DNA of 64,000 nt. It comes from Malaciobacter molluscorum LMG 25693. GTDB lineage: Bacteria; Campylobacterota; Campylobacteria; Campylobacterales; Arcobacteraceae. Each line of letters opens with the position of its first letter. Within the stretch, counting starts at the first letter, position 1. Below, piece by piece: positions 12,161 to 28,399 of this stretch. The position numbers and the translations under genes were made by a program. Below the pieces are notes generated by a model. That model did not search any database, was not told the origin of the DNA, and saw only the letters and a program-made list of their open reading frames with translations. Location: the NCBI RefSeq assembly GCF_003544935.1, contig NZ_CP032098.1, positions 248,001-312,000 of the forward strand, read 5' to 3'.

Positions 12161-13114
12161 ATGAAATTTATAATAATTGGAGCTGGTGGAGTAGGTTCAT
12201 TTTATGGTGTTAAATTAAAAATGATAGGACATAATGTAACTTTTATTGCAAGAAATGACAATTTAGAATATTTAAAAAATAATAAGTTAAAATTAACGCA
12301 TCCAGATTTTTTATTTGAAGATTATGTTGATGTAATCTCAATAGAAGAATTAGATAAAATAGATCCAAGTATGATAGATGCTATTTTCATTGCAACAAAA
12401 TCGATGAGTACCAAATTAATTTCAAAAACTTTAGCAAAATGGATACAACATACTCACGATGTTCCATATTTTATATCTTTACAAAATGGTGTAGAAAATG
12501 AAGATAGAATGTGCGAATATTTACCAAAAGATAAAGTTATTGGTGGATTGACAAGACTCATTGCAGCGCATATTATAAAAATTGGAGAAGTTGAGTCTGT
12601 TGGAGAAGTTCAAACAATTTTAGGAGCTGTTTTCCCTGATAAAAAAAATAATGATTTTTTAGAAATATTAAAAAAACAATTAGATAAAACAAATACTACA
12701 ACAATATTAACAAATAATATAAAATTAGAGTTATGGAAAAAACTAATTATTAATAATGGAGTAAATGCAATATGTGCATTACTTGAAGAAAAATCAGGAA
12801 CATTGATTAATGATGAAAAAGTATCAGTATTAATATATAATTTAATGAAAGAAGCAGCAATTGCTTCACACGTGGTTGGAGTTAATATATCAGAAGATGA
12901 TGCTAATGAAATGTTTGAATTGATGAAAAATTTTGAATCTATTATTCCTTCTATGTGGATGGATAAGAAAAATAATCGAGATTTGGAGTTAGATGACATT
13001 TGTGGTGTTGTAATAAAAAATTGTGAAAAACAAGGAATAGATGCTTCTTATACGAGAACTATATCAACAGTTTTAGAATATCAATATAAAAAACAAAAAA
13101 ATTCAGAAAAATAA
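12161..13114 (+). CDS. 2-dehydropantoate 2-reductase family protein (PanE-like)
   Basis: A 317-residue NADPH-dependent reductase of the ketopantoate reductase family, cytoplasmic. The N-terminal Rossmann motif is IIGAGGVGSFYG. The middle has the family's FISLQNGVENED segment, with the catalytic Lys expected near LWKKLIINNGVNAICALL, and the helical C-terminal domain completes the fold. ATG codons lie at 12158 and 12161; I prefer the second because AGGA (12151-12154) then has a 6-nt spacer. Family members include true PanE (pantothenate synthesis) and paralogues with other substrates. With no pan genes nearby I leave the symbol blank. Confidence 0.85.
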   Translation: MKFIIIGAGGVGSFYGVKLKMIGHNVTFIARNDNLEYLKNNKLKLTHPDFLFEDYVDVISIEELDKIDPSMIDAIFIATKSMSTKLISKTLAKWIQHTHDVPYFISLQNGVENEDRMCEYLPKDKVIGGLTRLIAAHIIKIGEVESVGEVQTILGAVFPDKKNNDFLEILKKQLDKTNTTTILTNNIKLELWKKLIINNGVNAICALLEEKSGTLINDEKVSVLIYNLMKEAAIASHVVGVNISEDDANEMFELMKNFESIIPSMWMDKKNNRDLELDDICGVVIKNCEKQGIDASYTRTISTVLEYQYKKQKNSEK

Positions 13115-13366
13115 TTTAAAAGTCACCTAAAGTCATACTAAAGTCACCTGAATATATTATAATTACACCAGTTGAAGTAAATGTGAAGTATATTTGTTAC
13201 TACAAAATATATATACATAGTGTAATTATTATAAACTTATTCTGGATTTTTCTCCCTCTCCATGATTTTTATTATCACATTTACTTCTATCTTTTTTATA
13301 AACAAAAATCATAATAAATTATAAATATATTTTTTGCTATATTGTTCTTTTATTACAAGGAATAAA
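13115..13366 (+). promoter_or_regulatory. Repeat-rich regulatory region upstream of the AEC operon
   Basis: This is the longest non-coding stretch of the window (252 bp). AAAGTCACCT occurs at 13119-13128 and 13140-13149, with AAAGTCATAC at 13129-13138 between them, giving three head-to-tail copies spaced 10 and 11 bp. GAAGTA recurs at 13174 and 13185. GAAGTAAATGTGA (13174-13186) has a perfect inverted copy at 13275-13287, and ATAATTACAC (13159-13168) has one at 13220-13229, so the two pairs interleave. A probable extended -10, TGCTATATT, lies at 13335-13343, with AAGGA as SD just before the ATG at 13367. Confidence 0.55.
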
Positions 13367-14293
13367 ATGGCTCTTTTTTTCATATTACTTAGCAAAATTA
13401 TACCTTTATATCTTAATATTGCAATTGGTTATTTATTGACAAAATATTTAAAAGTTAGAAGAGATATTGTAGCTTTTTTATTAGTATATATTTTAGGACC
13501 AGCAGTTATATTTTTTGCAACATTATCAATAAAAATAGATTTACAGATTGCATTTTTACCTATTATTGTATTTTTATTTGGAAGTTTTATAGCTTTTTTT
13601 GTATTAATAAAGCACAACAAAAAATGGAAAGATTCAAGTATTAATACTTTGGCCTTTACTTGTGGTACAGGAAATACTGGATATTTTGGTATTCCTTTGG
13701 CAATGATTCTTCTTGAACCACATGTTGTCAATATATTTATTTTTGTTACTTTGGCTTCATTGTTATATGAAAATACAACGGGCTTTTTTATAACAGCAAA
13801 AGCAGCATTTTCTGCAAAACAATCTATATTAAAAATATTAAGGTTACCTTTAGTGTATGCATTTATTTTAGGTTTAATATTAAATATAAATGGATTTGAA
13901 TTACCACAAAAAGTTATACCATATTTTGAAAATTTAAAATGGATTTATGGAATATTAGGTATGATGATGCTAGGAATGGGATTAAAAGGTTTTAATTTAG
14001 AAGAGGATTTTGATAAAAAGTATATAAAAATTGCCTATTTTTATAAGTTTTTTGTTTGGCCTGTATTTATGTTATTAATTATTTTTTTAGATAAAAATGT
14101 TTTTATGTATTTAAATAATGATATTTATGATGTTCTATTTATGATTTCAATAGTTCCCTTAGCTGGTAATACTGTAACTTTGGCAATATTATTAAAATCA
14201 AAACCTGAAAAAGCTAGTTTTACTGTGTTATTAAGTAATTTAGTATCTGTTGTATATATTCCTTTAACTTTAAGTATTTATCAAGGATTGTAA
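13367..14293 (+). CDS. AEC-family permease (auxin efflux carrier family), copy 1
   Basis: A 308-residue integral membrane protein of the AEC family (PF03547-type; bacterial members export or exchange organic acids such as malate). About ten hydrophobic helices are visible in two five-helix halves. The halves meet near residue 160-170, and each has a polar, glycine-rich break (GTGNTGYFGIPLAM in the first, VPLAGNTVTLAIL in the second) typical of the substrate site. I start at ATG 13367 (SD CAAGGA); an upstream in-frame TTG lies before the SD. It is closely followed by a lipoprotein and a second AEC permease with similar motifs. The substrate is unknown. Confidence 0.85.
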   Translation: MALFFILLSKIIPLYLNIAIGYLLTKYLKVRRDIVAFLLVYILGPAVIFFATLSIKIDLQIAFLPIIVFLFGSFIAFFVLIKHNKKWKDSSINTLAFTCGTGNTGYFGIPLAMILLEPHVVNIFIFVTLASLLYENTTGFFITAKAAFSAKQSILKILRLPLVYAFILGLILNINGFELPQKVIPYFENLKWIYGILGMMMLGMGLKGFNLEEDFDKKYIKIAYFYKFFVWPVFMLLIIFLDKNVFMYLNNDIYDVLFMISIVPLAGNTVTLAILLKSKPEKASFTVLLSNLVSVVYIPLTLSIYQGL

Positions 14294-19802: not shown

Positions 19803-19810
19803 AAAATATA

Positions 19811-19838
19811 TTCTAAGAGAGGATTCTCTTAGAATTTT
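19811..19838 (+). terminator. Rho-independent terminator after trxA
   Basis: TTCTAAGAGA (19811-19820) and TCTCTTAGAA (19825-19834) form a perfect 10-bp stem with a GGAT loop, followed by TTTT. It ends only about 15 nt before the next gene's ATG, leaving almost no room for a separate promoter for the sensor kinase. Confidence 0.8.
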
Positions 19839-19853
19839 ACTTCATTAATAAGA

Positions 19854-22034
19854 ATGAACTTTAAGAAAATACTTTTTATTTTAATAATATTTAATACTAT
19901 ATTTTTATATGCACAAAATTCTAAAAATATATTAATTTTAAATTCATATCATAAAGGTTTTATTTATAGTGATAATATTATAAATGGTATTGAAAGTATT
20001 TATAAAGATCAAGAAAATATAAAAACAAATATTTTATATATGGATTCAAGAAGAGTCTTTGTATCTGATTATAAGACTCTTCTCTCAAATTTTTATAAAG
20101 CAAAGTTTGAAAATAAAAAATTTGATTTAATAATCTGCATTGGTAAATTCTCATATGATTTTGTAATTAATAATAAATTAAAAGTTTTTAACTATAGTAA
20201 AATAATTTATACAGGAATAGAAAATAAAAAAATAGATAATCCAAATATTTATACAATTAGTGCAAATATAGATGTAAAAGAGAATGTCGAACTTATCTAC
20301 ACTGTTATGAAAAAATTAAAAAAACTATATATTATAAATAGTTCATTAGAGAAAGAAAAGACAAATATAGAAGTGGAAAAAGCGTTAAAAAAATTGAAAA
20401 AACGTTTTGAAATTCAATATATAGAACATTCCTCAATTTCTCAGCTTAAAGAAAAGTTTAGTTCTCATAAAAAGAATGAAGCTATATTATTTATAAAATT
20501 TTTAGAAGATAGTGATTTTAATAGTATAAAAGATACTAATATTGTTAATTTTATAAAATCAGTAAATATTCCTATTTTTGTTGTAGATGACCAATTTTTA
20601 AAAGAAGGTGTAGTTGGAGGTAAAATTATATCTTCAACTAAATTAGGAAAAACAATTGCAATATTATCTATAGATATTTTAAATAATAAACAACATATAA
20701 AAAGAGACTATAAACTAAAGTATGATTATAAATTTGATAGTTTAGTTTTAAAAAAATATAATATTAAACCATACTATTTTTATAACAGTTATAGTATTGT
20801 AAATAAGCCTGAAGATTTTTTCCAAAAACATAGAGATTTATTTGAAATACTTTTTTTGCTTTTTCCATTACTTTTACTATTAGTTATAGGTTTATTACAT
20901 AATATATATTATAGAAAACAAACAGAAAAATTACTTCAAGAGAGAATTGACTTTGATGATACTTTATTAAATGCAATGAAAAATCCAATCTTTTGGCAAA
21001 ATAAAGATGAAAAAATAGTTGATTTTAATAGTAAATTTAGTTCAATGATAGGTATTTCTGAAGATAGGTTATATTATGCAAGTTTAAAAAAGTTAAGAAG
21101 TTATAAAAAAGCAAGAAAGTTATTAGAAGCATTGGAAAAATATAATAAAAATGAGAAAGAAGCTTTATTTACTTTTGAAACTGAAGATAAAACAAAAAAA
21201 ATATATTTAATTAATCAAGCAAAATTTAAAGATGAAAAGTCTCAAAGTTATGGAACAGTGACAATTTTAACTGATATTACTAAAGAAAAACAAATAGAAA
21301 AAGAGAAAGAAAGAAATCAAGAATTCTTAATTCAACAATCAAAATTAGCAGAAATTGGTGAAATCTTTTCAGCAATTGCTCATCAGTGGAAAGCTCCATT
21401 ACTGGAGATTACTACTATTGCTCAAGAGAGTTTTTATTCAAATGAGGATGATGATAAAGAAAAAGAGTCTTACGTAAAAGATATAATGACTCAAGTAAAA
21501 TATATGAATGATACAATAAATGACTTTCAAGATTTTATTAAGCCTTCAAATAAAAAAACAAAATTTGATATATACGAAGCAATTACTTCTTTACTTAAAA
21601 TTATTGATCATAATATTAGATTTAATTACATTGATGTAAAAATAGATTTAAAAGACAATACTAATGTTACCGTATATGGATATAGAAATGAGTTTATGCA
21701 AAGTTTATTAAATATCATAAATAATGCAAAAGATGAACTTGTAAATAATGATTTTAAAAATAGAAAAATAAATATAGAAATTTTTAATAAACAAAATAAA
21801 TTGTATATTAATATAAAAGATAATGCAGGTGGAATAAGTACAAAAAATATAGAATCGATATTTACTCCATATTATTCAACAAAAAAAGATGGAAGTGGAA
21901 TAGGTTTATATATGACAAAAGTAATAATAGAAGATAAAATGAATGGTAAAATAAGAGTAAAAAATACAAAAGTTGGTGCATGTTTTACTATTATATTGGA
22001 GCAGGGAAATGAAAATATTAGCACTAGAGGATAA
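19854..22034 (+). CDS. Membrane sensor histidine kinase with ABC substrate-binding-like sensor domain, copy 1
   Basis: A 726-residue kinase. A signal peptide (about 1-20) leads into a periplasmic region (about 24-320) resembling ABC-transporter substrate-binding proteins of the PF04392 kind; it opens ILILNSYHKGFIYSDNIINGI. One membrane helix (about 328-350) follows, then a PAS-like domain (about 360-475; FWQNKDEKIVDFN), a phosphoacceptor helix with H510 in IAHQWKAPLLEI, and a HATPase domain (NIINNAKDE, DNAGGIS, GSGIGLYMTKVIIED). Its end overlaps the response regulator start by 26 nt. No good SD precedes the ATG. The ligand is unknown; dcuB next door suggests a C4-dicarboxylate or related acid, which is inference. 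Confidence 0.85.
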   Translation: MNFKKILFILIIFNTIFLYAQNSKNILILNSYHKGFIYSDNIINGIESIYKDQENIKTNILYMDSRRVFVSDYKTLLSNFYKAKFENKKFDLIICIGKFSYDFVINNKLKVFNYSKIIYTGIENKKIDNPNIYTISANIDVKENVELIYTVMKKLKKLYIINSSLEKEKTNIEVEKALKKLKKRFEIQYIEHSSISQLKEKFSSHKKNEAILFIKFLEDSDFNSIKDTNIVNFIKSVNIPIFVVDDQFLKEGVVGGKIISSTKLGKTIAILSIDILNNKQHIKRDYKLKYDYKFDSLVLKKYNIKPYYFYNSYSIVNKPEDFFQKHRDLFEILFLLFPLLLLLVIGLLHNIYYRKQTEKLLQERIDFDDTLLNAMKNPIFWQNKDEKIVDFNSKFSSMIGISEDRLYYASLKKLRSYKKARKLLEALEKYNKNEKEALFTFETEDKTKKIYLINQAKFKDEKSQSYGTVTILTDITKEKQIEKEKERNQEFLIQQSKLAEIGEIFSAIAHQWKAPLLEITTIAQESFYSNEDDDKEKESYVKDIMTQVKYMNDTINDFQDFIKPSNKKTKFDIYEAITSLLKIIDHNIRFNYIDVKIDLKDNTNVTVYGYRNEFMQSLLNIINNAKDELVNNDFKNRKINIEIFNKQNKLYINIKDNAGGISTKNIESIFTPYYSTKKDGSGIGLYMTKVIIEDKMNGKIRVKNTKVGACFTIILEQGNENISTRG

Positions 22035-22665
22035 TGAAAGGCTTTTAAAGCTTATAAAAGGTTCTTTAGAAAAAGAAGGTTATGAGGTTGATTGTTTTTC
22101 AAATGGTGATGATGCATTAGATGTATTAGAAAATGGTTATAACTGTTTTATTCTTGATATAAATGTTCCTTCTATTGATGGAATTACTCTATTGGAATAT
22201 ATTAGAGTAAAATCATCTGATGTTCCTGTATTAATAATCAGTTCAAATCATGATTTAGAAAAAATAGAAAAGTCATATAAGTTTGGATGTAATGATTATA
22301 TAAAAAAGCCATTTTATATAATTGAACTTGTTGAAAAAGTAAAAAAAATGTGTAGCCCTAAATCTAATAAATTTCAATTAGCTGAAAATACAGTATTTGA
22401 TTTAAAAGAACGCAAATTATATATTGATAGTGATGAGGTAGAACTTACAAAAAAAGAGATTTTATTTTTAGAGTTATTTGCACAAAATCTTAATAAAATT
22501 GCAAGTTATGATGAAATGATTGATTACGTATGGCAAGGTGAAGAGACTAATCTTACAAATATACGGGCAATGATAAAAAGACTTAGAAAAAAACTTCCTA
22601 TTGATAGTATTGTTATTGTAAAAGGAATGGGATATTCATTAAATAAAAGTGCAAAATTTATATAA
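22009..22665 (+). CDS. OmpR/PhoB-family response regulator, copy 1
   Basis: A 218-residue two-domain regulator. The receiver domain (1-115) has the acidic pair in ALEDNERLL, the phospho-acceptor Asp in CFILDINVPS (near residue 50), the SS switch in LIISSNHD, and Lys in YIKKPF. The C-terminal winged helix (about 125-215) includes LTKKEILFLELFA and the recognition-helix region NIRAMIKRLRKKL. I start at ATG 22009, which has AGGGA upstream and gives exactly the length of copy 2; a longer frame from 21973 is less likely. It overlaps the kinase gene, so the two form one system. Targets are unknown. Confidence 0.9.
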   Translation: MKILALEDNERLLKLIKGSLEKEGYEVDCFSNGDDALDVLENGYNCFILDINVPSIDGITLLEYIRVKSSDVPVLIISSNHDLEKIEKSYKFGCNDYIKKPFYIIELVEKVKKMCSPKSNKFQLAENTVFDLKERKLYIDSDEVELTKKEILFLELFAQNLNKIASYDEMIDYVWQGEETNLTNIRAMIKRLRKKLPIDSIVIVKGMGYSLNKSAKFI

Positions 22666-22684
22666 AGTATTTTGTTAATTGAAG

Positions 22685-22715
22685 AATGTAAAGAGAAATA
22701 TTTTCTCTTTACATT
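22685..22715. terminator. Bidirectional terminator between response regulator 1 and dcuB
   Basis: AATGTAAAGAGAAA (22685-22698) and TTTCTCTTTACATT (22702-22715) form a perfect 14-bp stem with a 3-nt loop, lying between the two convergent stop codons. Confidence 0.85.
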
Positions 22716-22718
22716 TTC

Positions 22719-24062
22719 TTAGATAATTCCATAAAGTTTTGCTAAAATAAATCCTACTGTTGAAGCAGTACCTACTCCAAGAAGCCCTGGAATAATAAAA
22801 CTGTGATTGATAACAAATTTACCAATTCTTGTTGTTCCCGATCTATCAAAACTAATAGCTGCTAAATCACTTGGATATGTTGGTAAAATATAATATCCAT
22901 AACAAGCAGCAGCAAATGCAGCAATTACACCAGGATCAACACCAACAGATAATGCAATTGGAACAATTGCAGCTAGTGCAGCACCTTGAGAGTTAACAAG
23001 TTTTGATACAAAAATTAATACAATTGCATATGCCCATGGATATTGTGCAACAATTCCACCTAATACTTCTTTTATATCGCCAATGTGTGCACCAAACATA
23101 GTTTTAGTCATCCAAGCAACACCATATACTGCAATAAGTGCAACCATACCTGATTTAAATACTTCATTACTTGAAATTGCAGAAGGTTTAACTTTTGCAA
23201 CTACAAAGATAATAGCACCTGCTGTTAACATAAACATTTGAATAACATAAACCATAGATAGTGGTTTACCATGAATTACTGGTCTTAGTTCTGGAAATGC
23301 TCCTAAAATAGCAACTATTGCAATAGAACTAAGGAATATCCACATTGCATTCCAGTAAGTCTGAGGTAATTTGTTATTTAATAGTGTTTTATCTTCACCA
23401 TAAATATATTTTTTCATTTCAGGATCTTTGATTTTCTCTTGGAATTCAGGATCATCTTCTAAATTTTTACCTCTGAACATACTCCAAAAACCAATAACTA
23501 AAACCCCACAGATTGCACCTGGAATTGTAATTGATAATAATTGAACTAAATCTAATTCTTTACCATTAATCATAGCATGACCTGATAACATAGCAACTAA
23601 AGAAACAACTGCAACTGATACAGGAGATGTTACAATACCCATTTGCGCTGCAATTGTACTTGCTGCCATTGGTCTTTCAGGTCTTACTCCTTTTCTAATA
23701 GCAATGTCATAAATAATTGGTAACATTGTATATACTACGTGACCTGTACCACAAAGAAAAGTTAAAGTTAGCGTAGTTAATGGAGCTAAGAATGTAATAT
23801 GTTTAGGATGTTTTCTTAACAATTTTTCTGCTAATTGAAGCATAACATCTAATCCACCTGATGCTTGTAAAGTTGCACCAGCAGTAATAACTGCTAACAT
23901 AACAAGCATTACTTTGATTGGAGGGTTACCTGGAGTCATCCCAAATCCAAAAACAAGTACAACCACACCAATACCACCGAATAAACCTAATGCTAGTCCA
24001 CCTTTTCTAGCACCAAGGAATAATACAGCTAATACAATGATTAATTGAATTGTAAATTCCAT
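22719..24062 (-). CDS. dcuB: Anaerobic C4-dicarboxylate transporter DcuB
   Basis: A 447-residue inner-membrane antiporter of the DcuA/DcuB family that exchanges fumarate, malate or aspartate for succinate during fumarate respiration. The N-terminal third is very close in wording to E. coli DcuB ([65 protein letters not shown]) and less like DcuA. There are about ten to twelve helices, and the length matches DcuB. It is a single gene between two sensor-kinase operons on the opposite strand. Its promoter region carries a long palindrome (24120-24147), so it is probably tightly regulated. Confidence 0.93.
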
Positions 24063-24087
24063 AATTTGTCCTTTTATTTTACATAAG

Positions 24088-24147
24088 TGAATATGTATTC
24101 ATAGTGAAATTCTATATACTCAATATGTCATTAGTATGACAAATTGA
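24088..24147 (-). promoter_or_regulatory. dcuB promoter with two palindromic operator candidates
   Basis: Reading the minus strand, TTGTCA (24142-24137) and TATATA (24118-24113) with an 18-bp spacer form the likely dcuB promoter, with a start near 24106. A 28-bp palindrome (arms TCAATATGTCAT at 24120-24131 and ATGACAAATTGA at 24136-24147, one mismatch, 4-bp spacer) covers the -35 and most of the spacer. A second, perfect palindrome TGAATATGTATTCA (24088-24101) lies just downstream of the start. This layout suits a repressor, or an activator overlapping the -35. Confidence 0.6.
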
Positions 24148-24198
24148 ATATTTTATAAAATAAACAAACTTAATTATAAAATTAATATATATTTAAGT

Positions 24199-24236
24199 TT
24201 TACAATTAATAGAGTATAGTGTATAATAATTACATG
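24199..24236 (+). promoter_or_regulatory. Promoter of sensor kinase 2, probably leaderless
   Basis: TTTACA (24199-24204), a 17-bp spacer and TATAAT (24222-24227) make a near-consensus sigma70 promoter. Transcription should start about 7 nt after the -10, which is at the A of ATG 24234. No SD precedes that ATG. Confidence 0.55.
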
Positions 24237-26399
24237 AGAAAGATTATTTTACTTATATTTTTTATTAATATTCATTTATTTGCATATTCTATACTTATTA
24301 TTAACTCCTACCATAAAGGTTATCAATGGAGTGACAAAGTAATACGTGGATTAGAAGATGTGTTGATTCAAAAAGATTATATAGATTTTAATATTCTATA
24401 TATGGATTCAAAAAGAATATCTTCTAGTGAATATTTTGAAAGTTTAAAGAATTTATATAAAATTCAATTAAGAAATAGAAAGTATGATCTAATAATTCCT
24501 ATTGATAGATTTGCTTATGATTTTGTTTTGGAAAACTATTATGAACTTTTTGAAACTGAGCCTATATTAGCTGTAGGAATAGAGAGATTTTCACATGAAA
24601 GAGTAAAAAAGTATTCGTTACAAAAGAAAGTATCTGCAATTTTAGAAAAAAGAGATCTTTTTGGTAATGTGAATATGATAGAAAAGAATTTTTATAATAT
24701 AAAAAAACTTTATATTATAAATGATAAAAGTATAAATGGAAAACATACAGAACCACTTATTGAAGATTTAATTAAAAACTTTAATAATAGAATCAAACTT
24801 CAATATTTAAAAGAAGATGATTTATCATCTTTAAAAAATTATCCTTTTGAAAATGGTAGTGCTGGATTATTTATTAGATTTTATAAAAATAAAAATGGAA
24901 AATTAAATAAAAATAGTGAAATAATTAATTTTATAAAAAACTCAAAAATTCCTATATTTGTTACAGATTCTTTATTTGTTGGAAAAGGTGCAACAGGTGG
25001 TAAAATAGTAGATTTATATAAACTTGGAAAAGAATCAGGACAAATGGCACTTGATATTTTAAATGGTAAAGATGCTATGGTGATTGAATATAAAGATTTT
25101 GAATACTTTTTTGATTATGAAAAATTAAATGAATTTTTACTTTCAATTGTTAATTTATCAGAACCTTATACAATTATTCATAAAAAAAAGACTTTTTTTG
25201 ATAATTATAGAAATCTTATTGATTTTGTTTTTACTATTTCACCTTTATTAGTATTTTTGATTTTAGGATTGATTCATAATATATATAAAAGAAAAAGTTT
25301 AGAAAAAGATTTACGAAAAAGAATTGAGTTTGACGCAACGATGTTAAATGCAATTGATAGTCCAATCTTTTGGCAAGATTCAGAAGGAAGAATTGTTGAT
25401 TCAAATAATACATTTTGTAATCTACTAGAGTTATCTTCTGATTATTTATATGGAAAAAAACTTATTGATTTAAAAGATAATCATAATATAAAACAAATTG
25501 TAAGAATGATAAGTAATTATAATTTAAATAAAAATAATAATGAATTTGATTTTATTGATAAAGATAATAACAAAAAAATCTATCTAATTAAACAAGCAAA
25601 ATTTAAAGAACAAAAAATTAAATATGAGGGTTATGTAACTATTTTTACAGATATTACAAGAGAAAGAGAAATTATCTTGGAAAAACAAAAAAATAGACAA
25701 TTTGCTATTCAGCAAAGTAAATTAGCAGAGATTGGAGAGATCTTCTCGTCAATCGCTCATCAATGGAAAACACCTTTAATTGAAATTACAGCAATTGCAC
25801 AAGAACTATTTTATACAAGAAAATCAAAATCACAAAATATTAATGAAGATGATAGTTTTGTTAAAGATATTATGCAGCAAGTAACTTATATGACTGATAC
25901 AATTAATGAATTCCAGAAATTTATAATGCCTTCAAATAAAAAAGTTGATTTTAATATTGAAGAAGCAATTGAAACTATGTTAGAAATAGTTAATCATAAT
26001 TTAAAATATAATAATATAAAAATATCTTTAAATATAAAAGAAGGAACAAATTTAATAGTACATGGTTATAAAAATGAAGTAATGCAGTCAATTTTAAATA
26101 TAATTAATAATGCAAGAGATGCTTTATTAAATAATTATTATAAAGATAGAAAAATTGAAATATCTCTTTTTAATGAAAAGTCAGATTTAATTATAAAAAT
26201 AATTGATAATGCAAAAGGTATTAATATAAAAAATATAAATAAAATTTTTGAGCCATATTATACAACAAAAGAGAAAGGTCATGGAATAGGTTTATATATG
26301 ACAAAAGTAATAATAGAAGATAAAATGAATGGTAAAATATCAGTTGAAAATATAGAAAGGGGAGCTATGTTTACAATAAGATTAGCACAAAGAAAATGA
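24234..26399 (+). CDS. Membrane sensor histidine kinase with ABC substrate-binding-like sensor domain, copy 2
   Basis: A 721-residue paralogue of the kinase at 19854 with the same order of parts: signal peptide (MRKIILLIFFINIHLFA), substrate-binding-like periplasmic domain beginning ILIINSYHKGYQWSDKV, membrane helix (about 326-348), PAS-like domain (FWQDSEGRIVDSN), phosphoacceptor near residue 509 in IAHQWKTPLIEITAIAQE, and HATPase (NIINNARDA, HGIGLYMTKVIIEDKMNGKI). A GTG at 24219 is in frame, but that would start inside the -10 box, so ATG 24234 is preferred. The sensor halves differ far more than the kinase halves, suggesting different ligands. It overlaps its regulator by 4 nt. Confidence 0.85.
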   Translation: MRKIILLIFFINIHLFAYSILIINSYHKGYQWSDKVIRGLEDVLIQKDYIDFNILYMDSKRISSSEYFESLKNLYKIQLRNRKYDLIIPIDRFAYDFVLENYYELFETEPILAVGIERFSHERVKKYSLQKKVSAILEKRDLFGNVNMIEKNFYNIKKLYIINDKSINGKHTEPLIEDLIKNFNNRIKLQYLKEDDLSSLKNYPFENGSAGLFIRFYKNKNGKLNKNSEIINFIKNSKIPIFVTDSLFVGKGATGGKIVDLYKLGKESGQMALDILNGKDAMVIEYKDFEYFFDYEKLNEFLLSIVNLSEPYTIIHKKKTFFDNYRNLIDFVFTISPLLVFLILGLIHNIYKRKSLEKDLRKRIEFDATMLNAIDSPIFWQDSEGRIVDSNNTFCNLLELSSDYLYGKKLIDLKDNHNIKQIVRMISNYNLNKNNNEFDFIDKDNNKKIYLIKQAKFKEQKIKYEGYVTIFTDITREREIILEKQKNRQFAIQQSKLAEIGEIFSSIAHQWKTPLIEITAIAQELFYTRKSKSQNINEDDSFVKDIMQQVTYMTDTINEFQKFIMPSNKKVDFNIEEAIETMLEIVNHNLKYNNIKISLNIKEGTNLIVHGYKNEVMQSILNIINNARDALLNNYYKDRKIEISLFNEKSDLIIKIIDNAKGINIKNINKIFEPYYTTKEKGHGIGLYMTKVIIEDKMNGKISVENIERGAMFTIRLAQRK

Positions 26400-27052
26400 A
26401 AATATTACTTTTAGAAGATAATGAAAGATTATCAAATGTAATAAAATATGCATTATTGGATGAAGGATATAGTGTAGATTGTTTTTTTGATGGTGATGAT
26501 GCATTAGATTCTATTGGTAATGGATATGCTTGTTTTATCCTTGATATAAATGTACCTAATTCAGATGGTATATCAATACTTGAATATATAAGATTGAATC
26601 ATAGTAAAATACCTGTTTTAATAATTAGTTCAAATCATGAATTAGATAAAGTTAAAGAGTCTTATGAAAAAGGTTGTGATGATTATTTAAAAAAACCATT
26701 TTATATAATTGAACTTCTTCAAAAAGTAAAAAAATTATGTGGGGAGAAAAAGCAGTATTTAATTTTTGATGAAACATATAAATATAGTTTTATTAATCAT
26801 AGATTATATAAAAATGAAGAAGAGATTGAATTGACAAAAAAAGAGATTTTGTTTTTAGAATTATTTGCAAGAGATATTCATTTTGTAGCAACCTATGATA
26901 ACATTGAAGAGTATGTTTGGGAAGGTGAAGATACAACTTTAGCAAATATACGTTCTATGATAAAAAGATTAAGAAAAAAATTACCAAATGATAGTATAAC
27001 GATTATTAAAGGAATAGGGTATTCTTTAAATAAAAATGTAAAATTTCTATAA
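26396..27052 (+). CDS. OmpR/PhoB-family response regulator, copy 2
   Basis: A 218-residue regulator of the same length and layout as copy 1: receiver with LLLEDNERLS, CFILDINVPNSDG (phospho-Asp), LIISSNHE and YLKKPF; winged helix with LTKKEILFLELFARD and NIRSMIKRLRKKL. The putative recognition helices of the two copies differ at few positions (RAMIKRLRKKL against RSMIKRLRKKL), so they may share DNA sites and cross-regulate. It overlaps the kinase by an ATGA and ends in a hairpin shared with the convergent symporter gene. Confidence 0.9.
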   Translation: MKILLLEDNERLSNVIKYALLDEGYSVDCFFDGDDALDSIGNGYACFILDINVPNSDGISILEYIRLNHSKIPVLIISSNHELDKVKESYEKGCDDYLKKPFYIIELLQKVKKLCGEKKQYLIFDETYKYSFINHRLYKNEEEIELTKKEILFLELFARDIHFVATYDNIEEYVWEGEDTTLANIRSMIKRLRKKLPNDSITIIKGIGYSLNKNVKFL

Positions 27053-27075
27053 GAGGGAGTTCCTCTTATATTTTT
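27048..27075. terminator. Bidirectional terminator between response regulator 2 and the AGCS gene
   Basis: TATAAGAGG (27048-27056) and CCTCTTATA (27062-27070) form a 9-bp stem with a 5-nt loop, followed by TTTTT on the plus strand. The stop codon of the regulator lies within the left arm. Confidence 0.75.
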
Positions 27076-28399
27076 ATTTATTTTTAAAATATCTTTTAGT
27101 TTCAGAAGCTACTGTATTTGATAATAGTAATAATCCAATTAAGTTTGGAATAGCCATAAGTCCATTTGCAACATCTGAAAAATTCCATACTAAATCAAGT
27201 TTTAACATAGCTCCTATTAAAATAAAACTAACAAAAACGATTCTATAAAGTTTTATAGATTTATGTCCAAATAGATATTCAAATGCTCTTTCACCATAAT
27301 AAGACCAACCAAGAATTGTAGAATAACCAAAAAGTATAGTGGCAATTACAATTATTATTGCTCCTGTATTTCCTAAGAAAAATTCAAAACTTTTTAAAGT
27401 TAATTCTCCTGCATCAACTCCTTGTTGCCAAATAGGTGCCATTAAAATAATTAATGCTGTAATTGTACAAACAACAATTGTATCAATAAATGTTTGAGTC
27501 ATTGAAACTAATGCTTGAGTTACTGGATCTTTTGTTTTAGCTGCTGCTGCTGCAATTGGTGCTGAACCAAGTCCTGATTCATTTGAAAAAACACCTCTTG
27601 CAAGACCATAACGTATGGCTGCTGCGACCGCTGCTCCTGCAAATCCACCTGTAGCTGATATAGGATTTATAGCATGATAAAATATAAGTGAAAATGCATC
27701 AGCAACTTTATCTATATTTGTAAAAATAATTGAAAATGCTGTTAGTAAGTAGATTGCAATCATAAATGGAATTAAAAAAGAAGTCGTTTTTCCAATTGAT
27801 TTAATACCTCCTAAAATAACAAATGATGTGATTGTTAAAAGAATAATACCTGTAACCCAAGTTGGAACAGCAAATTGAGTATCTAATGCTTTTGCAACGG
27901 CATTTGATTGTGACATATTTCCAATACCAAAAGATGCTAAAATTGTAAATAATGCAAATATTGCACCTAGTTTTGGTAAATTAGCGCCCTTAGCAATATA
28001 ATACATTGGACCACCTTTGAATCCATGTTTACCTTTTTCTCTATATTTTACTGCTAAAATAGCTTCTGAATATTTTGTAGCCATACCAACTAAACCAGTT
28101 ACCCACATCCAAAAAACTGCACCTGGTCCACCAAAAGAGATAGCCGTTGCAACACCAACAATATTACCAATTCCAACTGTTGCAGCTAATGCTGTTGTTA
28201 GTGCTGAAAAATGTGAAATATCACCTTGTGCACCCTTTTCTTTTACAAAAATAAGTTTTAAAGCATGTCCCAATGCCCAAAACTGCATTCCTTTTAATCT
28301 TATAGTTAAATATAATCCAGTACCAACTAAAAGTGTTAGCATAGGAACACCCCAAACAAACGATGAGATGGCAGAAATAACATTATTCAATGTTTCCAT
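27074..28399 (-). CDS. Amino acid carrier protein (AGCS family, sodium:alanine/glycine symporter)
   Basis: A 441-residue inner-membrane sodium symporter of the alanine-or-glycine:cation symporter family. Conserved segments include GVPMLTLLVGTGLYLTIRL, TALAATVGIGNIVGVATAI, GGPGAVFWMWVTGLVGMATK, YREKGKHGFKGGPMYYI and ARGVFSNESGLGSAPIAAA. About ten to eleven helices are visible, and the length is typical. AAGGAG precedes the ATG. It is a single gene, divergent from trxB. Its position right after the second two-component system, mirroring dcuB after the first, hints at co-regulation; that is inference. The substrate is probably alanine or glycine by family. Confidence 0.92.
   Translation of the reverse strand: METLNNVISAISSFVWGVPMLTLLVGTGLYLTIRLKGMQFWALGHALKLIFVKEKGAQGDISHFSALTTALAATVGIGNIVGVATAISFGGPGAVFWMWVTGLVGMATKYSEAILAVKYREKGKHGFKGGPMYYIAKGANLPKLGAIFALFTILASFGIGNMSQSNAVAKALDTQFAVPTWVTGIILLTITSFVILGGIKSIGKTTSFLIPFMIAIYLLTAFSIIFTNIDKVADAFSLIFYHAINPISATGGFAGAAVAAAIRYGLARGVFSNESGLGSAPIAAAAAKTKDPVTQALVSMTQTFIDTIVVCTITALIILMAPIWQQGVDAGELTLKSFEFFLGNTGAIIIVIATILFGYSTILGWSYYGERAFEYLFGHKSIKLYRIVFVSFILIGAMLKLDLVWNFSDVANGLMAIPNLIGLLLLSNTVASETKRYFKNK

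What the first reader, a model, noticed from the sequence alone, without database searches (positions are those of the whole stretch)
19854..27052. Two paralogous two-component systems with substrate-binding-protein-like sensors flank dcuB
Seen: two kinase-regulator operons with the same domain order (signal peptide, ABC substrate-binding-like domain, one membrane helix, PAS, kinase, then an OmpR-type regulator of exactly 218 residues) lie on either side of dcuB, and an AGCS symporter follows the second. The kinase and regulator halves are very alike, while the sensor halves differ strongly. Known: PF04392-type domains bind small ligands in ABC transporters. Inference: a duplicated regulatory unit in which each sensor controls the convergent transporter beside it (dcuB; AGCS symporter), with possible cross-talk because the recognition helices are nearly identical.
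Basis: partly seen in the sequence, partly recalled or inferred. Interest (0 to 1): 0.65.

Follow-up and report, generated by a model that had tools for sequence, protein, structure and literature searches.

The report
Carboxylate-sensing kinase family with matched operators
The two sensor-kinase/regulator pairs are real, but they belong to a set of six in this bacterium (probably Malaciobacter, family Arcobacteraceae); the second pair most likely switches on the divergent C4-dicarboxylate transporter gene, and a small-RNA candidate, through a matching DNA repeat, while no control of the amino-acid symporter could be found.

Summary
Two 726-residue kinases with PF04392 sensors (signal peptide, one membrane helix, PAS, HisKA, HATPase) and 218-residue OmpR regulators flank a Dcu transporter. 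Sensors are 37% identical, kinase cores 62%, regulators 62%. They are two of six such units in the genome.

The proposed pairing is not supported. HK2-RR2 belongs with the divergent dcu, not with AGCS. In relatives HK2 adjoins Dcu or an unrelated DASS dicarboxylate carrier, and in the genus Dcu1 occurs in exactly the genomes that have HK2. These promoters share an 11-bp direct repeat (WGNCAYAYTAADGNCAY) 10 bp before a -10 box: at one mismatch or fewer in 28 of 31 such promoters, 0 of 858 control upstreams and 0 of 16 AGCS promoters. This genome has two exact copies: at dcu, and before a conserved, unannotated 114-nt RNA candidate inside the window. Genomes with only RR1 keep the RNA site, so RR1 probably shares it.

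The paralogues HK3-HK6 adjoin aspartate, fumarate, lactate and molybdoenzyme operons, each with its own 11-bp repeat.

Best reading: a radiated family of carboxylate-sensing two-component systems with co-diverged operators. Ligands, phosphotransfer and DNA binding are inferred.

The parts
19854..22034 (+). HK1: sensor kinase, PF04392-like sensor, one TM, PAS, HisKA, HATPase; sister of HK2, found only in the genus, with a more diverged sensor
22009..22665 (+). RR1: OmpR/PhoB-type regulator, 218 aa; recognition helix nearly identical to RR2
22686..22714 (.). two-way hairpin (terminator-like) between the convergent RR1 and dcu
   Evidence: sequence read; not listed by the terminator scan
22719..24062 (-). 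Dcu-family anaerobic C4-dicarboxylate transporter; predicted target of RR2
24109..24114 (-). predicted -10 box of dcu (TAGAAT), 10 bp after the operator
24125..24141 (-). predicted RR2 operator TGTCATACTAATGACAT, two half-sites 11 bp apart; one of two exact consensus matches in 2.80 Mb
24199..24227 (+). sigma70-like promoter of HK2 (TTTACA-17-TATAAT) a few bases before ATG 24234
   Evidence: consensus match only
24219..26399 (+). HK2: sensor kinase, PF04392 sensor (ATG at 24234 is the likelier start); family-wide partner of a C4-dicarboxylate transporter
26396..27052 (+). RR2: OmpR/PhoB-type regulator, 218 aa
27048..27070 (.). terminator-like hairpin between the convergent RR2 and AGCS
27074..28399 (-). 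AGCS Na:alanine-type symporter; neighbour of trxB, no family operator in its promoter; not counted as a target
13131..13147 (+). second exact RR2 operator (AGTCATACTAAAGTCAC, with a third half-site just before it), -10 TATAAT at 13158-13163
13174..13287 (+). candidate small RNA, 114 nt, nearly invariant in the genus; 13-bp terminal helix, CU-rich loop; no Rfam match
13367..14293 (+). AEC-family membrane carrier (PF03547) downstream of the RNA candidate; possible target

Best explanation
HK2-RR2 is most likely a C4-dicarboxylate-sensing two-component system. A periplasmic PF04392 binding-protein fold binds a dicarboxylate; the signal passes through one membrane helix and a PAS domain to the kinase; phosphorylated RR2 binds two half-sites 11 bp apart that take the place of the -35 box, 10 bp upstream of the -10 of the divergent dcu gene, and activates it. 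The same operator drives a small-RNA candidate at 13174-13287. HK1-RR1 is its sister, confined to this genus: it kept the DNA specificity but has a more diverged sensor, so it probably feeds another signal into the same operator, above all at the RNA. AGCS is not a demonstrable target of either. Both units belong to a family of at least six paralogues (aspartate/asparagine, fumarate, lactate, molybdoenzyme), each next to its target operon and each with its own 11-bp operator. Shown: domains, fold, synteny, co-occurrence, operator conservation. Inferred: ligand, direction of regulation, binding.
For: Five HK2 loci have divergent Dcu and fourteen with full-length HK2 have co-directional DASS (PF00939) 5' of HK2. 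Dcu1 occurs in exactly the four of six genus genomes with HK2. Unbiased motif sampling found an 11-bp period in RR2-type promoters (score 7.24, next period -1.45), and 11 was also the top period for RR4, lutA and RR6 targets. At one mismatch or fewer the RR2 pattern fits 18/20 and 10/11 C4-transporter promoters, 0/858 controls and 0/16 AGCS. In this genome 2 of 12 matches at one mismatch or fewer are exact; the reversed control pattern has none. The sensor model fits PF04392 binding proteins 3lft, 3lkv and 6hni at Z 22-23 (next fold 16.8). HK5 keeps lutABC when TRAP is replaced by L-lactate permease. In Sulfurospirillum the HK3 unit adjoins aspA-dcuA-ansB, the operon that PMC7755780 reports as the most strongly lowered on PCE against fumarate.
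Against: No ligand, phosphotransfer or DNA-binding data exist for these proteins. Solved PF04392 relatives bind aromatic amino acids, as far as known, not dicarboxylates. HK2 loci L078 and L081 have no transporter beside HK2, and DASS in L069/L149 lacks the operator. The RR3 and RR4 patterns fit few Sulfurospirillum-type promoters (3/26 and 3/14), so those operators drift or are wrong there. The set-2 genomes partly overlap set 1. The HK1-HK2 sister grouping has support of only 81.
Confidence: 0.72

Rival explanations
1. One reading: HK1-RR1 controls the convergent dcu and HK2-RR2 controls the convergent AGCS.
For: Gene order in the window and in G004/G005. AGCS lies near RR2 or RR1 in several genera. 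A weak AT-rich repeat TCACTTAATTT/TAATTTAATTT precedes AGCS in the genus.
Against: dcu and HK2 co-occur and move together without HK1 or AGCS beside them (G002). In G023 dcu adjoins HK2 where no HK1 was found. No family operator in 16 AGCS promoters. AGCS keeps its place by trxB without either kinase beside it (L057).
Confidence: 0.06
2. Refinement rather than true rival: both pairs act on the same operators. RR1 and RR2 are interchangeable at dcu and at the RNA, with kinase cross-talk, so the duplication adds a second input rather than a second output.
For: Near-identical recognition helices. The RR2-type operator at the RNA is exact in G001 and G003, which have HK1-RR1 but no HK2. Kinase cores 62% identical.
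Against: G001/G003 might use another OmpR-type regulator at the RNA. HK1 was not found with dcu apart from HK2. Phosphotransfer specificity is unknown.
Confidence: 0.4
3. The 11-bp repeats belong to another regulator (for example a PhoB-like or global OmpR-type protein), and the kinases are only neighbours.
For: The half-site TGTCAT resembles the E. coli PhoB box (own knowledge). The genome has many other OmpR-type regulators.
Against: The repeat type changes with the neighbouring paralogue and hardly cross-matches. It follows HK2 across unrelated transporters. Only two exact sites exist in this genome.
Confidence: 0.1

Closest known systems
DcuS-DcuR (E. coli) C4-dicarboxylate two-component system
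   Same: Predicted job: sense C4-dicarboxylates outside and control a Dcu transporter.
   Different: DcuS has a PAS-type (PDC) periplasmic sensor (own knowledge); here it is a PF04392 binding-protein fold, and the regulator is OmpR/PhoB-type. The DcuS/MalK profile matched only the ATPase end, 48.6 bits against a cut-off of 520.
PF04392 solute-binding proteins (3lft with L-Trp, 6hni CD0873, 3lkv)
   Same: Sensor fold, Z 22-23 over about 270 residues.
   Different: Those are transport-type binding proteins; here the fold is fused to a kinase. 14-17% identity, ligand probably different.
Kinases with binding-protein (Venus-flytrap) sensors: BvgS, EvgS
   Same: Periplasmic binding-protein domain fused to a kinase, with a cytoplasmic PAS (PMC8534201).
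   Different: Tandem domains of another Pfam family and multi-domain phosphorelay kinases; here one PF04392 domain and a simple kinase.
PceS-PceP (Sulfurospirillum)
   Same: OmpR-type regulator that binds direct repeats at the -35 region in Campylobacterota; CTATA half-sites six nucleotides apart, i.e. an 11-bp period (PMC7755780).
   Different: PceS has seven membrane helices and is linked to tetrachloroethene; not shown to be a member of this family.
RacRS (Campylobacter jejuni)
   Same: Two-component control of aspA and fumarate use in the same phylum (PMC6682613).
   Different: Sequence not compared here; reported as a repressor with unknown signal.

Membership tests
PF04392 (ABC_sub_bind) sensor domain | sequence match above the curated cut-off | tested here: met
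   HK2 39.1 bits, HK1 27.0 bits by genome search (missed by hmmscan of the whole protein); 60 of 63 family sensors match at E 0.01
PF04392 (ABC_sub_bind) sensor domain | two-lobed fold of 3lft/6hni/3lkv | tested here: met
   HK2 model pLDDT 93.5; Z 22.8, 22.6, 22.1 against a next-best fold at 16.8; HK1 not modelled
PF04392 (ABC_sub_bind) sensor domain | binds a small ligand in the cleft | not testable with these tools
   no binding data; pocket geometry not computed
Orthodox histidine kinase with OmpR/PhoB regulator | HisKA histidine (AHQW), HATPase_c, receiver with conserved D, winged-helix output | tested here: met
OmpR/PhoB-type operator | direct repeat with 11-bp period next to the -10 | tested here: met
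   binding itself not tested
DcuS-DcuR | DcuS/MalK-family kinase at NCBI's cut-off | tested here: not met
   48.6 bits (HK1) and 51.3 bits (HK2), cut-off 520, ATPase region only
DctB-DctD | regulator with a sigma54 AAA+ domain | tested here: not met
   RR1 and RR2 carry receiver and Trans_reg_C only
Rfam families (for the RNA at 13174-13287) | score above a family's gathering threshold | tested here: not met
   no match in the window; none up to E 1 in 12900-13500
RacRS | sequence relation to Campylobacter RacS/RacR | not tested
   not compared

The most novel reading that the evidence does not exclude
In Arcobacteraceae and Sulfurospirillum one ancestral PF04392-kinase/OmpR unit has radiated into a sensor set for carbon sources and electron acceptors (C4-dicarboxylates, aspartate, fumarate, lactate, molybdoenzyme substrates) in which sensor, neighbouring transporter and an 11-bp operator type diverged together, and several paralogues have in turn taken over one small-RNA gene whose operator switches type from genus to genus.
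Probability: 0.5. Interest if true: 0.75.

Novelty: new variant of a known kind. Interest (0 to 1): 0.6.

Why it matters
The review of respiratory regulation in Campylobacterota notes that no functions are reported for most Arcobacter regulators (PMC6682613). Here several regulator-operator pairs can be read from sequence and tested one by one, including which genes sense lactate, fumarate or aspartate. The family is also a natural series for studying how duplicated two-component systems change their signal, their DNA site, or both: HK1-RR1 seems to have changed the signal and kept the site. The RNA candidate adds a possible post-transcriptional arm.

Tried and rejected
Reading the dcu site as a palindrome (TGTCATNNNNATGACA): dropped, because DASS promoters show it is an 11-bp direct repeat. 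RNA candidate as a known family such as 6S: no Rfam match. One-mismatch RR2 sites elsewhere in the genome: most lie inside genes, taken as chance. RR1 operator at AGCS: only an AT-rich weak repeat, not counted. The sampler failed on TRAP promoters because it locked on to the conserved end of RR5. HK1 structure and pocket geometry not done. Literature searches for PF04392 kinases or for Arcobacter carboxylate two-component systems found nothing that describes this family; the library holds open-licence papers only.

Full report
OBSERVATION. HK1 and HK2 share 47% identity over 704 aligned positions: 36.7% in the sensor, 62.4% in the kinase core. RR1 and RR2 are 62% identical without gaps. ATG 24234 is the likelier start of HK2. 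PF04392 is clear for HK2 and weaker for HK1, and the family as a whole belongs to it (60 of 63 sensors). The HK2 sensor model (pLDDT 93.5) fits the PF04392 proteins 3lft, 3lkv and 6hni far better than any other fold.

SIX UNITS, NOT TWO. The same genome holds four more full-length units. HK3-RR3 follows aspA-dcuA-ansB and precedes a DAACS symporter. HK4-RR4 follows fumarase. HK5-RR5 lies between lutABC and a TRAP transporter with a Dld-like oxidase. HK6-RR6 is divergent from a DMSO-reductase-like operon. The lut, Dld, AnsB and Dms names rest on my reading of the translations.

WHO GOES WITH WHOM. In a tree of 88 kinases the types fall into clades; HK1 is found only in the genus and is sister to HK2 with modest support (81). 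HK2 has a C4-dicarboxylate carrier at its 5' side: divergent Dcu in five loci, co-directional DASS 17-103 nt upstream (one slight overlap) in fourteen. In the genus Dcu1 is present in exactly the four genomes with HK2 and absent from the two without. In G002 the dcu-HK2-RR2 cassette lies elsewhere while HK1-RR1 directly abuts AGCS at the trxA-trxB place, and G003 has only HK1-RR1-AGCS there. AGCS sits beside trxB whether or not a kinase is next to it.

OPERATORS. Promoters of Dcu and DASS beside HK2 share TGTCATAYTAA/DGNCAY, two half-sites 11 bp apart, about 10 bp before a -10 box. A motif sampler given no period found 11 bp in RR2 (7.24 against -1.45 for the next period), RR4, lutA and RR6 targets; for aspA 10 and 11 were close. 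Types differ by paralogue: RR3 TCACTTTTAGT/TCA, RR4 GTCCTATTTTT/ATCC, RR5 TCATNNNNWTN/TCAT, RR6 GMCACANTTTC/GCCACA. At one mismatch or fewer, RR2 fits 28 of 31 C4-transporter promoters, RR3 10 of 11 aspA promoters in the discovery set, RR5 58 of 72 lactate promoters, against 0.0-0.8% of 858 control upstreams. None fits 16 AGCS promoters. The second set shares several genomes with the first; four HK2 loci that appear new to it (L142, L144, L146, L147) all carry an exact site. RR3 and RR4 patterns do poorly in Sulfurospirillum-type loci (3 of 26, 3 of 14), so there the operators have drifted or are different.

A SECOND TARGET. In this genome the RR2 pattern has two exact matches; the reversed pattern has none even at one mismatch. 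The second match, window 13131-13147, precedes a 114-nt element that is almost unchanged across the genus while neighbouring proteins differ by 22-28%. It folds better than shuffled sequence (z -3.5), has no Rfam match, and its terminal helix is kept across genera with changes on both sides in 4 of 12 pairs (arms paired by hand, six sequences, so the count leans towards the helix). A CU-rich stretch (UUUCUCCCUCUCC or UCCUUUCUSCC) suggests base pairing with ribosome-binding sites; that is inference. All six genus genomes have the exact operator pattern, in the five whose sequence was read (window, L052, L072, L079 and the G001/G004 hits by position) at this element, including G001 and G003, which lack HK2. 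Since RR1 and RR2 have nearly the same recognition helix, RR1 probably reads it. In other genera the same element is preceded by an RR2-type (L062), RR3-type (L081) or RR5-type (L060, L064, L067) repeat.

OUTSIDE EVIDENCE. In Sulfurospirillum the HK3 unit directly follows aspA-dcuA-ansB, and HK4 lies by Dcu or DASS and fumarase. PMC7755780 reports the S. multivorans aspA-dcuA-ansB operon as the most strongly lowered on PCE against fumarate (log2 about -9) and fumarase with a dicarboxylate carrier at about -3.6 to -4. That fits carboxylate control but does not show that these kinases do it; S. multivorans itself was not read here, S. diekertiae and S. cavolei were.

LIMITS. Ligand, direction, phosphotransfer, binding and the RNA itself are untested. 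Solved relatives bind aromatic amino acids. HK1's signal is open. Verdict: a new variant of a known kind, with a well supported regulator-target assignment for HK2 and a corrected reading of the finding.

Noticed in passing
window 13174-13287 (+): Nearly invariant 114-nt RNA candidate with terminal helix and CU-rich loop, own promoter with an exact RR2 operator, upstream of an AEC carrier; relatives in other genera carry RR3- or RR5-type operators there.
   Followed up: partly
L155, L157, L171, L172 (Sulfurospirillum): HK3-type kinases there are about 616-639 residues, roughly 100-120 shorter than in Arcobacteraceae, which may mean loss of the PAS domain.
   Followed up: no
L070, L196 (Poseidonibacter ostreae): The HK2 gene is split into frames of 268 and 449 residues, a possible frameshift.
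   Followed up: no
L107, L111, L202: TRAP transporter replaced by L-lactate permease (PF02652) between RR5 and Dld, with the RR5-type repeat kept, which points to lactate as the HK5 signal.
   Followed up: yes
L198, L208-L211: Dcu divergent from HK4 in Sulfurospirillum and relatives: the same divergent layout as dcu-HK2, with another paralogue.
   Followed up: partly
L129, L131: Distant kinases of this architecture beside several carrier-sized genes, on a long branch outside the six types.
   Followed up: no
L087, L189: HK3-like kinases next to a DcuC-like carrier.
   Followed up: no
window 19810-19835: Terminator-like hairpin between trxA and HK1, so HK1-RR1 needs read-through or its own promoter, which was not found.
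   Followed up: no
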